Source: Paraglaciecola sp. T6c (lineage in GTDB: Bacteria > Pseudomonadota > Gammaproteobacteria > Enterobacterales > Alteromonadaceae). Taken from it: a DNA stretch of 64,000 bases. Position numbers and translations under genes: made by a program. Shown here piece by piece: positions 54,399-59,606 of the stretch (within the stretch, counting starts at the first letter, position 1; each line of letters starts with the position of its first letter). Location: assembly GCF_000014225.1 (NCBI RefSeq), contig NC_008228.1, forward strand, positions 3,038,001 to 3,102,000, given 5' to 3'. A model generated the notes under the pieces. The model made no database searches, was not told the origin of the DNA, and saw only the letters and a program-made list of their open reading frames with translations.

Positions 54399-55010
54399 CT
54401 ATTTTATATTCTTGCGAATACTGGAAATAGCAAGTTTCAAATCATTTTTACGCAGCGCGTCAACAATATGGCGATGCTCGTCCACCAATGTTTGCGAGTT
54501 ACGAATACGTTGATAGTTCATGCGCATTCGTAACACAACTGGGTACCATAGATTGGTTAAGTCTTCACCACCGGCCAATCCAACAAAATACTTGTGAAAC
54601 TCGATATCGGTTTTGGTTAGCTCAGTAAATTCTTCTTTGTCAAAGTGTTCTTGCATCTTATCGATGATGGCATCCATACGCGCCAAATCCGCTTCAGATA
54701 TATTGTTTTCCAATTGCTTTACTGCATGCTCTTCAATCTTACGACGAATTTCAATACTCAGTTTTTGTAACTCAGGCGTCAGCGGGCTGCTAACCGACGA
54801 CCCTACATTGTCCTTGCTGACTAACAAGCCTTCTTTAGTCAATTTAATTAATACGTCTCTGATCGGGCCGCGAGACGTACCAAAACGTTCAGCCAATTGT
54901 TGTTCATTCAACTTTGTGTTCGGCTCTAATTCGCCAGAGATAATATCTGAGCGCAATACATCAGCGATTTGCTCTCTGACGGAAAGAATTTTATTAGGTA
55001 AGCTTCCCAA
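54399..55010 (-). CDS. GntR family regulator (FCD/FadR-type)
   Basis: 203 residues. N-terminal winged helix ILSVREQIADVLRSDIISGE, LNEQQLAERFGTSRGPIRDV, LIKLTKEGLLVSKDNVGSSV; C-terminal FCD ligand domain with EFHKYFVGLAGG and DEHRHIVDAL. FCD regulators commonly bind sugar acids or other carboxylates, which fits the adjacent operon. The frame has no ATG; TTG 55010 is the first possible start after an in-frame stop, and an ATG at 55020 in another frame opens a short MPLFGKLT peptide overlapping it. It is divergent from the catabolic operon and probably represses it through ATTGTTAACAAT sites. Confidence 0.88.
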   Translation of the reverse strand: MGSLPNKILSVREQIADVLRSDIISGELEPNTKLNEQQLAERFGTSRGPIRDVLIKLTKEGLLVSKDNVGSSVSSPLTPELQKLSIEIRRKIEEHAVKQLENNISEADLARMDAIIDKMQEHFDKEEFTELTKTDIEFHKYFVGLAGGEDLTNLWYPVVLRMRMNYQRIRNSQTLVDEHRHIVDALRKNDLKLAISSIRKNIK

Positions 55011-55112
55011 AAAGCGGCATTATATTATGTACTATATACTAAACGAAAAAGTCTTCGTGTGATAAATATTTTTAGTTAACAATGCTCATATGTATAGCAT
55101 GATCATTTAGGT

Positions 55113-55140
55113 TTGCAATTAATTGTTAACAATGTACAAT
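55113..55140 (+). promoter_or_regulatory. promoter of the anhydrogalactose operon with internal GntR operator
   Basis: -35 TTGCAA (55113-55118), 16-bp spacer, -10 TACAAT (55135-55140). The perfect palindrome ATTGTTAACAAT (55122-55133) fills the spacer, an arrangement expected for repression. A half-site AGTTAACAAT lies at 55074-55084. Confidence 0.6.
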
Positions 55141-55174
55141 TAATTCACGGTCAATTTACATAGTCAGGATTTCC

Positions 55175-56311
55175 ATGAGTGTCATTACCAAACTAGACAC
55201 ACCTGCCATGAACAGTTCACAAATTCAGTCAGTCAATGTTGAGTTATTCAACGTGCCCCTTGACGAAGTGTTGAACGATGCTAAGCACGGCGATCATACC
55301 CACTTTGAGCTGATCCTATGCACCATTACTTGTACCGATGGTACTCAAGGCGTGGGTTATACCTACACAGGTGGTAAAGGTGGACGCGCTATATACTCAC
55401 TGCTTAATGACGAACTAAAGCCTTTCTTGATGGGTAAAGATGCTAGCTGCATCAATCATTTATGGGAAGAAATGCAATATCACTTGCACTATGTTGGTCG
55501 TGGCGGTTTAGTCAGTTTCGCCATATCCGCAGTCGATATCGCCCTGTGGGACATTCATTGCAAGGTTCTTAATCAACCCTTGTGGAAAGTAGCTGGGGGC
55601 TGCAGTGACCGCGTAAACTGTTATGCAGGAGGCATTGACCTTAATTTTTCCACTGAAAAATTGCTCGGCAATATCCAAGGCTACTTAGACTGCGGCTTTG
55701 AAGCGGTCAAAATAAAAGTGGGCAAAGAAGATTATCGTGAAGACGTGGCCCGCGTGGCGGCTGTGCGCAACCTGATTGGTCCTGATGCGATATTTATGGT
55801 GGATGCAAATTATTCACTTACAGTCAATAAAGCCATTAAGTTTGCTCAGGCGATAGAGCAGTATGATATCACCTGGTTTGAAGAACCGACCATTCCTGAT
55901 GATTTTGCCGGTTTTGCTCACATTGCCAGCAAAATCAATATTCCGTTGGCCATGGGCGAAAACCTGCACACTATTTACGAATTCAACCAAGCGATAAGCC
56001 AAGCCAAACTTGGGTTCTTACAACCTGATGCATCGAATATTGGCGGTATCACTGGTTGGCTAACGGTTGCCCAGATGGGCTACGCGAACAACTTACCTAT
56101 TTGCAGTCATGGCATGCACGAATTACATGTATCTCTTATGGCATCTCAGCCAAATGCGGGTTACTTGGAAGTACACTCGTTTCCCATTGACCGATATACC
56201 ACTCACCCTCTGAAACTTGAAAATGGCAAAGCCGTTGCGCCCAGTACACCCGGTGTAGGCGTCGAGTTCAAGACAGAGTTACTTCTTCCCTATTTAGTTA
56301 AACATTCTTAG
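55175..56311 (+). CDS. enolase-superfamily enzyme, probable 3,6-anhydro-L-galactonate cycloisomerase
   Basis: 378 residues, mandelate-racemase subgroup. Active-site lysines in AVKIKVGK (Lys179, Lys181), metal ligands Asp210 (MVDANYS), Glu236 (WFEEPT) and Glu262 (GENLHT), Asp285 in QPDASNIGG and His312 in CSHGMHE. N-terminal cap segments DAKHGDHTHFELI and GYTYTGGKGG, and YVGRGG, closely resemble, from memory, the anhydrogalactonate cycloisomerase of agar-degrading Vibrio. That enzyme opens the anhydro ring to give 2-keto-3-deoxy-L-galactonate. First gene of a four-gene operon whose other members fit the same pathway. Another sugar-acid dehydratase role is possible but less likely. Confidence 0.82.
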   Translation: MSVITKLDTPAMNSSQIQSVNVELFNVPLDEVLNDAKHGDHTHFELILCTITCTDGTQGVGYTYTGGKGGRAIYSLLNDELKPFLMGKDASCINHLWEEMQYHLHYVGRGGLVSFAISAVDIALWDIHCKVLNQPLWKVAGGCSDRVNCYAGGIDLNFSTEKLLGNIQGYLDCGFEAVKIKVGKEDYREDVARVAAVRNLIGPDAIFMVDANYSLTVNKAIKFAQAIEQYDITWFEEPTIPDDFAGFAHIASKINIPLAMGENLHTIYEFNQAISQAKLGFLQPDASNIGGITGWLTVAQMGYANNLPICSHGMHELHVSLMASQPNAGYLEVHSFPIDRYTTHPLKLENGKAVAPSTPGVGVEFKTELLLPYLVKHS

Positions 56312-57346: not shown

Positions 57347-57372
57347 AAAATAGGGCAGAAAGGAAAATTAAT

Positions 57373-58137
57373 ATGTTAGAAAAATTCAGTTTAGAAGGTA
57401 AAGTTGCTCTAGTAACGGGGTGTAAGCGCGGCATAGGTAAAGGGATCGCGCTAGGGCTGGCCGAAGCAGGCGCGGATATCATTGGCGTTTCAGCAAGCTT
57501 AGCGCTTGAAGGTTCAGACGTTGAAAACGAAGTGAAAGCACTGGGTCGTAATTTCAAAGGTTATCAATGTGACTTTTCAGACCGTGATGCGTTGTACGCT
57601 TTTATTAAAGAAGTTAAAGCTGATTTTCCTAAAATCGATATTTTGGTGAATAACGCAGGCACTATTTTGCGTGCTCCCGCAGCGGAACATGGCGATGATT
57701 TATGGGATAAAGTGATTGACGTAAACTTAAACTCTCAGTTCATTCTTAGCCGAGAAATTGGCAAAGAGATGGTGGCCCGCCAGTCTGGAAAAATCATTTT
57801 CACTGCATCATTACTCACCTTTCAAGGCGGCATTACGGTACCGGGCTACGCGGCAAGTAAAGGCGCTATTGGTCAATTGGTGATGGCACTGTCAAACGAA
57901 TGGGCAGGCAAAGGCGTGAATGTTAACGCTATAGCCCCGGGTTATATTGATACTGACAATACACAAGCATTGCGCGAAGATAGCGAGCGCTCGGCGGCAA
58001 TTTTAGGGCGAATTCCGCAAGGTCGCTGGGGCAACCCTGACGACTTCAAAGGGCCTGCGGTCTTTTTAGCTTCTGACGCTGCCAGTTACGTCAATGGCGC
58101 TATTTTATTGGTCGATGGCGGCTGGATGGGGAGATAA
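57373..58137 (+). CDS. SDR family oxidoreductase, probable 2,5-diketo-3-deoxy-L-galactonate 5-reductase
   Basis: 254 residues, classical short-chain dehydrogenase. Cofactor motif [25 protein letters not shown], catalytic Ser in [18 protein letters not shown] (Tyr and Lys), and PGYIDTDNT. It is close to KduD-type 2-deoxy-gluconate/5-keto-acid reductases. In the pathway, reducing the 5-keto group yields 2-keto-3-deoxy-D-gluconate, which then enters the Entner-Doudoroff route. A GAAAGGAAA ribosome site precedes the start; the gap to the dehydrogenase gene is 26 bp. Specific substrate is inferred from operon partners. Confidence 0.75.
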
Positions 58138-58142
58138 TCTCA

Positions 58143-59606
58143 ATGACTGTTCAAGATTTACACTTTAAAAACAAGGTTAATTTCATTGGAGGGCAATATG
58201 TGCCCTCTAACGAATCCGATACAATTGACATACTTAGCCCGTCAACTGGCAAAGTCATAGGCGAAATACCGGCAGGTTGTAAAGCGGATGCTGAAAATGC
58301 CCTAGAGGTGGCTCAGGCCGCGCAAAAAGCATGGGCTAAATTAACCGCTCGTACACGCCAGAATATGCTGCGTACCTTCGCTAACAAAATTCGTGAGAAT
58401 AAACACATTCTTGCCCCTATGCTCGTCGCTGAGCAAGGCAAATTGTTATCAGTAGCCGAAATGGAAGTGGACGTAACCGCTACGTTTATCGACTACGGAT
58501 GTGACAATGCCCTGACCATAGAAGGCGACATTTTGCCTTCAGATAATCAGGACGAAAAAATATACATTCATAAGGTACCAAGAGGCGTGGTTGTGGGCAT
58601 TACCGCCTGGAATTTCCCTCTGGCATTAGCAGGTCGAAAAATTGGCCCTGCGCTTATTACCGGTAATACCATGGTGTTAAAGCCTACCCAAGAAACGCCG
58701 CTTGCAACGACTGAGCTTGGGCGTATTGCCAAAGAAGCAGGCCTTCCCGATGGCGTATTAAACGTCATAAATGGTACTGGCTCTGTGGTCGGGCAAACCT
58801 TATGTGAAAGCCCCATCACTAAAATGATCACCATGACAGGCTCCACTGTCGCGGGTAAACAAATTTATAAAACCAGCGCAGAGTATATGACCCCTGTCAT
58901 GCTTGAGTTAGGTGGTAAAGCGCCGATGGTCGTCATGGATGATGCCGATCTTGATAAGGCGGCAGAAGATGCACTGTGGGGGCGTTTTGCCAACTGCGGA
59001 CAGGTATGCACTTGTGTAGAACGCTTATATGTTCATGCAAGTGTTTACGATGAGTTTATGGCTAAATTCTTACCTTTAGTGAAAGGGTTGAAAGTCGGGG
59101 ATCCCATGGATGCAGACTCACAAATGGGCCCTAAGTGTAACCAGCGTGAAATTGATAATATCGACCACATAGTGCATGAAGCCATCAAGCAAGGTGCAAC
59201 GGTTGCCACTGGCGGTAAGACGGCAACAGTTGAAGGCTTCGAAGGCGGCTGTTGGTATGAGCCCACCGTTTTAGTGGATGTTAAACAAGACAATATAGTG
59301 GTGCACGAAGAAACCTTCGGCCCCATTCTACCTATCGTTAAAGTCAGTAGTATGGAACAAGCTATCGAGTTTTGTAACGACAGCATCTATGGTTTAAGCG
59401 CTTACGTACACACCCAAAGCTTTGCCAATATTAATCAAGCTATCAGTGATTTAGAAGTCGGTGAAGTGTATATCAACCGCGGAATGGGTGAGCAGCATCA
59501 GGGCTTCCACAACGGCTGGAAACAAAGCGGTTTTGGCGGTGAAGACGGTAAGTTTGGCCTTGAGCAATACTTGGAAAAGAAAACCGTTTATATCAATGAG
59601 GCTTAG
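58143..59606 (+). CDS. aldehyde dehydrogenase, AldA-like, probable 3,6-anhydro-L-galactose dehydrogenase
   Basis: 487 residues. Active-site blocks: [37 protein letters not shown] (general-base Glu), [16 protein letters not shown] (catalytic Cys in GQVCTC), [14 protein letters not shown]-terminal [20 protein letters not shown] resembles E. coli lactaldehyde dehydrogenase AldA, the subgroup to which anhydrogalactose dehydrogenases are related. It would oxidise the aldehyde of 3,6-anhydro-L-galactose to the acid, feeding the cycloisomerase. Starts 5 bp after the SDR gene; last gene before a terminator. A lactaldehyde role is the alternative. Confidence 0.8.

What the first reader, a model, noticed from the sequence alone, without database searches (positions are those of the whole stretch)
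54399..59606. Complete-looking 3,6-anhydro-L-galactose catabolic operon with its own regulator
Seen: an enolase-superfamily enzyme with all catalytic residues, a zinc alcohol dehydrogenase, a KduD-like SDR and an AldA-like aldehyde dehydrogenase, tightly packed and divergent from an FCD GntR regulator. Established: agar degraders convert 3,6-anhydro-L-galactose via 3,6-anhydro-L-galactonate, 2-keto-3-deoxy-L-galactonate and 2,5-diketo-3-deoxy-L-galactonate to 2-keto-3-deoxy-D-gluconate, needing exactly one aldehyde dehydrogenase, one cycloisomerase, one dehydrogenase and one reductase. Inference: these four genes are that set. KDG kinase and aldolase are not in the window.
Basis: partly seen in the sequence, partly recalled or inferred. 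Interest (0 to 1): 0.75.

Follow-up and report, generated by a model that had tools for sequence, protein, structure and literature searches.

The report
Agar-sugar catabolic operon and its regulon
These four genes break down the unusual sugar of agar in a seaweed-eating marine bacterium, a pathway already described, and the regulator beside them probably also switches this bacterium's distant agarase, uptake and kinase genes through one shared DNA site.

Summary
In detail: four same-strand genes (55175-59606) divergent from an FCD GntR gene. The enolase-family protein scores 505 bits to Vibrio L-anhydrogalactonate cycloisomerase 5xd7 but 168 to the D-sugar enzyme 5olc, and groups with 5xd7 apart from its own-genome paralogues. 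The ALDH matches PDB 3k2w end to end. The host is very likely Paraglaciecola (Pseudoalteromonas atlantica) T6c, for which this pathway was published in 2014 (seen through citing papers). The enzymes are therefore known.

The control was not found in print. ATTGTTAACAAT lies in the operon promoter and at 6 further places: the window's TonB receptor, two between a GH50-type agarase and a transporter/KDG-type kinase/GH117-type operon, and three others. In 60 genomes the 12 with the cycloisomerase are the 12 with this regulator; they hold 4-16 sites each, the other 48 hold 0-3. So the regulator probably governs a scattered agar regulon including the kinase missing from the window. Binding is untested, and the regulator's start is altered in T6c and one relative.

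The parts
55175..56311 (+). 3,6-anhydro-L-galactonate cycloisomerase (enolase superfamily)
   Evidence: 505 bits to 5xd7 vs 168 to 5olc; in the ACI group of the tree
56321..57346 (+). zinc alcohol dehydrogenase, inferred 2-keto-3-deoxy-L-galactonate 5-dehydrogenase
   Evidence: ADH_N + ADH_zinc_N; below the cut-off of every NCBIfam model listed; gene order
57373..58137 (+). KduD-like SDR, inferred 2,5-diketo-3-deoxy-L-galactonate 5-reductase
   Evidence: KduD model TIGR01832 327.6 bits, just under cut-off 338.85; best PDB match 4z9y, 263 bits
58143..59606 (+). 3,6-anhydro-L-galactose dehydrogenase (ALDH family)
   Evidence: end-to-end match to 3k2w, next 6j75 at 604 bits
54399..55010 (-). FCD GntR regulator, TTG start
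   Evidence: Pfam GntR + FCD; orthologue in the same 12 of 60 genomes as the cycloisomerase
55122..55133 (.). operator ATTGTTAACAAT, inside the spacer of a promoter-like site 55113-55140
   Evidence: kept in relatives
55072..55083 (.). weaker second operator-like site (2 mismatches) nearer the GntR gene
   Evidence: sites with 2 mismatches are about as common in shuffles; core kept in L008-L011
53913..53924 (.). second exact operator, upstream of the TonB receptor gene
   Evidence: also faces a relative of this receptor in 7 of 11 relatives
51048..53843 (-). TonB-dependent receptor, predicted regulon member
   Evidence: Pfam; beside the operon in L008-L011
49311..50864 (-). tryptophan-halogenase-family protein, predicted regulon member
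   Evidence: Pfam PF04820; beside the operon in L008-L011
48533..49249 (-). SapC-family protein, predicted regulon member
   Evidence: Pfam PF07277; beside the operon in L008-L011

Best explanation
The four genes convert 3,6-anhydro-L-galactose (L-AHG) to 2-keto-3-deoxy-D-gluconate (KDG). The ALDH oxidises L-AHG to anhydrogalactonate; the enolase-family cycloisomerase opens the ring to 2-keto-3-deoxy-L-galactonate; the zinc ADH oxidises C5 and the KduD-like SDR reduces C5 back with the opposite configuration. The last two steps together act as a C5 epimerase (by my own stereochemical reasoning the diketo intermediate is the compound KduD handles in pectin breakdown). KDG is then phosphorylated by a PfkB kinase encoded about 0.7 Mb away and split by a KDPG aldolase encoded elsewhere. 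The divergent FCD GntR protein is most likely a repressor that binds ATTGTTAACAAT in the spacer of the operon promoter and the same site at the window's TonB receptor, at the GH50-type / transporter-kinase-GH117-type cluster and at further genes, and that a pathway intermediate releases. Shown: homology, gene order, the site and its co-occurrence. Inferred: enzyme activities in this strain, binding, repression, inducer.
For: Cycloisomerase 505 bits to 5xd7, 315 to 2ovl, 168 to the D-specific 5olc. Tree: in a group of 26 rows with 5xd7 and 2ovl (support 95/98), outside it 4 own-genome paralogues. A separate D-AHG-type set (ALDH, enolase, DGOK kinase, aldolase) lies at 1.067-1.072 Mb, its enolase 299 bits to 5olc and 137 to 5xd7. 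Order ACI-ADH-SDR-ALDH in 30 of 33 gammaproteobacterial loci. PMC5943477 passages: same enzymes in T6c, complete synteny with S66 except the KDG kinase. Kinase 184 bits to ketodeoxygluconokinase 3lhx. GH117-type protein 613 bits to 3r4y, 458 to anhydro-alpha-L-galactosidase 4ak5. Best KDPG aldolase 270 bits at 1166282. Regulon: 7 exact sites, reversed control 0, none inside an ORF of 100 aa or more. 12 of 12 cycloisomerase genomes have the GntR orthologue (E up to 1e-20) and 4-16 sites; 48 of 48 others lack both at the thresholds used and have 0-3. TTGTNNACAA within 300 bases upstream of the cycloisomerase gene in 30 of 33 gammaproteobacterial loci, shuffled mean 0.57, maximum 3.
Against: No assay, expression or binding data. 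The zinc ADH has no close characterised match. The SDR is just under the KduD cut-off. The site is not exclusive: one copy lies beside a second FCD GntR gene, others at a TRAP transporter and a PhyH gene; PMC3124978 puts TRAP genes beside a GntR gene in alginate use, so another regulator may share the site. The own genome has 9 other matches to this GntR protein. Genomes without the cycloisomerase also hold some excess of sites (48 against 18 control). The regulator's usual ATG is missing in T6c, and in P. polaris L009 an in-frame stop follows codon 11 (G008, seemingly the same strain, is flagged too). The cycloisomerase matches in G014 and G032 are flagged with TAG codons, though open frames of 368 and 365 aa are there. 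Five of 11 relatives are near (at least 91% identical in ACI), so their sites are not independent. The promoter scan finds no more promoters than shuffles.
Confidence: 0.9

Rival explanations
1. The operon handles the D-enantiomer from carrageenan, 3,6-anhydro-D-galactose, by the dauABCD route.
For: Both routes begin with an ALDH and an enolase-family cycloisomerase, and P. atlantica also has a D-AHG route.
Against: 505 bits to the L enzyme against 168 to the D enzyme. A separate D-type set with DGOK kinase and aldolase lies at 1.067 Mb. The D route as described has four steps without an ADH+SDR pair.
Confidence: 0.03
2. The operon is a non-phosphorylative route for another sugar acid, such as L-galactonate, L-rhamnonate, L-fuconate or galactarate.
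For: The enolase subfamily also holds such dehydratases, and ALDH/ADH/SDR sets occur in such pathways (recalled).
Against: All 18 NCBIfam models listed fall far below cut-off, the best talarate/galactarate at 247 of 500 bits. Operator shared with GH50-, GH86- and GH117-type genes.
Confidence: 0.03
3. ATTGTTAACAAT is the site of a different regulator (for example the second FCD GntR beside site 3281192, or a hexuronate regulator), and the window's GntR controls only its own operon.
For: GntR2 and its TonB receptor carry the same site here and in G007 and G008. TRAP genes lie beside a GntR gene in an alginate system (PMC3124978).
Against: The window GntR tracks the cycloisomerase exactly in 60 genomes. 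Where it is moved away from the operon (G004), two exact sites bracket it. GntR2 resembles it only at 36% over 61 residues of the HTH part.
Confidence: 0.15

Closest known systems
3,6-anhydro-L-galactose pathway of P. atlantica T6c (Lee et al. 2014; not read, seen through passages of PMC5943477 and PMC9706016)
   Same: Very likely the same organism, same enzymes and steps
   Different: The regulator and operator are not mentioned in the passages I saw
Paraglaciecola hydrolytica S66 agar cluster (PMC5943477, passages)
   Same: Ph1591 cycloisomerase, Ph1592/93 dehydrogenase, reductase (printed as Ph1694), Ph1595 AHG dehydrogenase: same order
   Different: There in one region of about 167 kb with kinase Ph1616; here split over the chromosome
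Vibrio sp. EJY3 AHG pathway (PDB 5xd7; PMC9706016, passages)
   Same: Same first two steps; cycloisomerase 505 bits
   Different: The Vibrio and Agarivorans loci seen here (L083, L037) have no SDR match and only 34-37% ADH matches in the fetched flanks
Carrageenan D-AHG pathway dauABCD (PMC5698469, passages)
   Same: ALDH, then enolase-superfamily cycloisomerase
   Different: D-enantiomer, then kinase and aldolase without redox epimerisation; a separate set in this genome
Agar cluster of Colwellia echini (PMC6952198, passages)
   Same: A passage says gene activity in the agar cluster was jointly regulated, by transcriptomics
   Different: No GntR is named in that text (0 occurrences)

Membership tests
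L-AHG catabolic pathway (four-step to KDG) | cycloisomerase groups with characterised L-AHGA cycloisomerase | tested here: met
L-AHG catabolic pathway (four-step to KDG) | AHG dehydrogenase of the ALDH family | tested here: met
   6j75 at 604 bits over 473 residues; that 6j75 is an AHG dehydrogenase is recalled, the entry is named Aldehyde dehydrogenase A
L-AHG catabolic pathway (four-step to KDG) | paired zinc ADH and KduD-like SDR in the operon | tested here: met
   families and gene order; substrates untested
L-AHG catabolic pathway (four-step to KDG) | KDG kinase and KDPG aldolase in the genome | tested here: met
   by homology
L-AHG catabolic pathway (four-step to KDG) | activity on L-AHG in series | not testable with these tools
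   needs enzymes and substrate
D-AHG pathway (dauABCD) | cycloisomerase closer to DauB 5olc than to 5xd7 | tested here: not met
   168 vs 505 bits
KduD (2-dehydro-3-deoxy-D-gluconate 5-dehydrogenase) | NCBIfam TIGR01832 score over 338.85 | tested here: not met
   327.6 bits; KduD-like, not filed as KduD
GntR/FCD sugar-acid regulon | GntR HTH and FCD domain | tested here: met
GntR/FCD sugar-acid regulon | conserved palindrome at own and target promoters | tested here: met
GntR/FCD sugar-acid regulon | protein binds the palindrome and is released by an effector | not testable with these tools
   needs a binding assay

The most novel reading that the evidence does not exclude
A GntR/FCD repressor of agar catabolism, not found in print by searches, acts through a palindrome (often extended to TGTNNATTGTTAACAATNNACA in relatives). 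It ties together a pathway scattered over the chromosome: L-AHG operon, GH50- and GH86-type agarases, GH117-type enzyme, KDG kinase, transporter and TonB receptors. It travels with the cycloisomerase gene through Paraglaciecola and related Alteromonadaceae; its inducer is probably a pathway intermediate such as 2-keto-3-deoxy-L-galactonate. The regulon also points to two parts with no known role in agar use, a PhyH dioxygenase and a TRAP transporter, and the regulator's start seems to have been altered more than once among close strains.
Probability: 0.78. Interest if true: 0.45.

Novelty: already known. Interest (0 to 1): 0.33.

Why it matters
The enzymes are the published route by which agar's hardest sugar enters central metabolism, of use for understanding the marine carbon cycle and for fermenting red seaweed. 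The added value is a testable master site for agar use: it would explain how a pathway whose exact sites are spread from 0.88 to 3.28 Mb is switched together, and it gives a sequence marker for agar degraders and for unassigned agar genes.

Tried and rejected
D-AHG (carrageenan) reading: rejected. Other sugar-acid dehydratases: rejected, all listed curated models far below cut-off. Locus-tag search (Patl_2550 to 2555, numbers estimated by me from gene position): no papers. Search for the core operator string: 28 papers hold it, 20 listed, none of the listed titles concerns agar or a GntR regulator. Agarase/agar with GntR and regulon words: 13, 3, 13 and 4 papers listed; I read passages of five papers for regulators and found no GntR regulon for agar or L-AHG. 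GntR is named there for alginate systems (PMC3124978, PMC6262041) and in carrageenan clusters (PMC5698469, PMC6262041). RegPrecise and most subscription papers were not searched. PDB code 3k2w: two papers listed, one on an S. aureus betaine aldehyde dehydrogenase; neither opened. The DNA fold after the ALDH gene is no better than shuffles overall (z -0.65), though it holds a 15-pair stem followed by T's. The looser 10-mer has 16 places against 7 for its control: of the 9 beyond the exact sites, 3 fit agar genes (2387756, 2392621, 2848951), 4 lie inside reading frames and 2 lie between genes with no agar link known to me.
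Full report
What is there. Pfam places them in the enolase (MR_MLE), zinc ADH, SDR, ALDH and GntR+FCD families. Pfam scans of 37 of the 40 distinct window ORFs of at least 200 aa showed no KDG kinase or KDPG aldolase.

Which genome. The window is 3038001-3102000 of a single 5,187,005-base contig, which agrees with my recollection of the Pseudoalteromonas atlantica T6c chromosome. 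The ALDH is identical to PDB chain 3k2w in the printed alignment apart from its first residue; that 3k2w comes from T6c is recalled. T6c is now filed as Paraglaciecola sp. T6c, and the nearest named relative by the cycloisomerase is Paraglaciecola mesophila KMM 241 at 99%. The identification is very likely, not proven.

What the enzymes are. The enolase-family protein scores 505 bits against 5xd7 (3,6-anhydro-alpha-L-galactonate cycloisomerase), 315 against 2ovl, 195 against the next chain, 3tj4, and 168 against 5olc, which PMC5698469 names as the D-specific DauB. A maximum-likelihood tree of 30 proteins puts it in a group of 26 with 5xd7, 2ovl and the 23 loci that I chose out of 80; four own-genome paralogues lie outside on long branches. 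Within that group 5xd7 sits with the Vibrio and Agarivorans rows on the Bacteroidota side, not next to the window protein. The ALDH's next best chain is 6j75 at 604 bits. The SDR is KduD-like but just below the curated cut-off, 327.6 of 338.85 bits. The zinc ADH has no close characterised relative.

Why it is not the carrageenan (D) pathway. The same genome has a separate set at 1.067-1.072 Mb: ALDH, enolase family, 2-keto-3-deoxy-galactonokinase and aldolase. Its enolase scores 299 bits to 5olc and 137 to 5xd7.

Prior knowledge. PMC5943477 (passages) states that L-AHG dehydrogenase and cycloisomerase act in Vibrio EJY3 and P. atlantica T6c (citing Lee et al. 2014 and Yun et al. 2015), that in P. 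[quoted passage not shown] The S66 gene order given there is the order seen here. PMC9706016 (passages) says the pathway was first proposed from Postechiella marina M091 and P. atlantica T6c. Lee et al. 2014 itself is not held. The enzymatic part is therefore already known.

Conservation. Of 80 related loci, 33 are gammaproteobacterial by their titles; in 30 of these the order ACI-ADH-SDR-ALDH follows directly. The exceptions are L014 (contig ends), L037 (Agarivorans) and L083 (Vibrio). Of the other 47 loci, 41 have relatives of all four in the fetched DNA, in another order; the 6 others include 4 short contigs.

The site. The operon's upstream region holds ATTGTTAACAAT at 55122-55133, inside the 16-base spacer between TTGCAA (55113) and TACAAT (55135). 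The promoter scan as a whole found 10 sites against a shuffled mean of 12.1, so the promoter is only suggestive. TTGTNNACAA occurs within 300 bases upstream of the cycloisomerase gene in 30 of 33 gammaproteobacterial loci (exact TTGTTAACAA in 24; shuffled means 0.57 and 0.04) and in 0 of 46 other loci; one of 47 was dropped for having under 100 bases upstream.

Own genome. The 12-mer occurs 7 times and its reversed control 0 times. None of the 7 lies in an ORF of 100 aa or more: the operon; the window TonB receptor; two between an agarase-type gene (Agarase_CBM domain; GH50 is my label) and an operon of sugar transporter, PfkB kinase and a protein whose PDB relatives are anhydro-alpha-L-galactosidases (GH117, my label); one between a second GntR gene and a TonB receptor followed by a sulfatase; one at a TRAP transporter; one between IclR and PhyH genes. 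The looser 10-mer has 16 places, control 7, and adds a TonB receptor (2387756), a third site beside the transporter (2392621) and a gene with porphyranase domains (2848951; GH86 is my label).

Relatives. In 60 genomes including this one, 12 have the cycloisomerase (E up to 1e-100), and the GntR orthologue (E up to 1e-20) is found in exactly the same 12. Those 12 hold 96 sites (4 to 16 each; control 8 in all); the 48 others hold 48 (0 to 3 each; control 18 in all). Inside the genus the split is 4-16 in 10 genomes against 0-3 in 12. Of 89 sites in the 11 relatives, 6 lie inside reading frames, and 67 have a facing gene within 600 bases that resembles one of 24 reference proteins: cycloisomerase in 11 of 11 genomes, GH50-type in 10, transporter in 8, GntR in 8, window TonB receptor in 7, PhyH in 6, TRAP in 4. 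The reference list came from genes in this genome, mostly near its sites, so this count is partly circular, and five of the relatives are close. In G004, where the regulator gene has moved away from the operon, two exact sites bracket it.

Against. The regulator's start is altered in T6c: 10 bases present in L008-L011, with their ATG, are absent, leaving a TTG start. In P. polaris L009 an in-frame stop follows codon 11 (also flagged in G008). If the regulator is poorly made in these strains, its targets may be partly constitutive there. A paralogous regulator could share the site (GntR2).

Mechanism. Oxidation, ring opening, oxidation at C5 and re-reduction at C5 give KDG; KDG kinase and KDPG aldolase complete the route. 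The site's place between the -35-like and -10-like boxes suggests repression relieved by an intermediate. PMC6952198 reports joint regulation of the agar cluster in Colwellia echini (passage), which fits shared control but names no GntR. Binding, sign and inducer are inferences.

Verdict. The finding is right and its chemistry is known. The new and testable part is the regulon.

Noticed in passing
window 55000-55030; L009: The window lacks 10 bases at the start of the GntR gene that L008-L011 have, including their ATG; only a TTG start remains in frame. In P. polaris L009 an in-frame stop follows codon 11. Two close strains thus have an altered regulator start; sequencing error not excluded.
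   Followed up: partly
window 48533-53843: TonB receptor, Trp-halogenase-family and SapC genes carry the same operator and stay beside the operon in L008-L011; another Trp-halogenase/SapC pair lies near the distant agar cluster.
   Followed up: partly
genome 2376958 and 881990: A PhyH dioxygenase and a TRAP transporter carry the exact operator here and in 6 and 4 of 11 relatives; their role in agar use is unknown.
   Followed up: partly
L037, L083: Agarivorans and Vibrio loci have the cycloisomerase with no SDR match and only weak ADH matches nearby, which hints at another fate for 2-keto-3-deoxy-L-galactonate (L083 is a short contig).
   Followed up: no
genome 3280154-3285738: A second FCD GntR gene is divergent from a TonB receptor and sulfatase with the same operator between them, so two regulators may share one site.
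   Followed up: partly
window 59720-59770: A 15-pair stem followed by T's lies between the ALDH gene and the convergent next gene, a possible terminator that the simple scan did not list.
   Followed up: no
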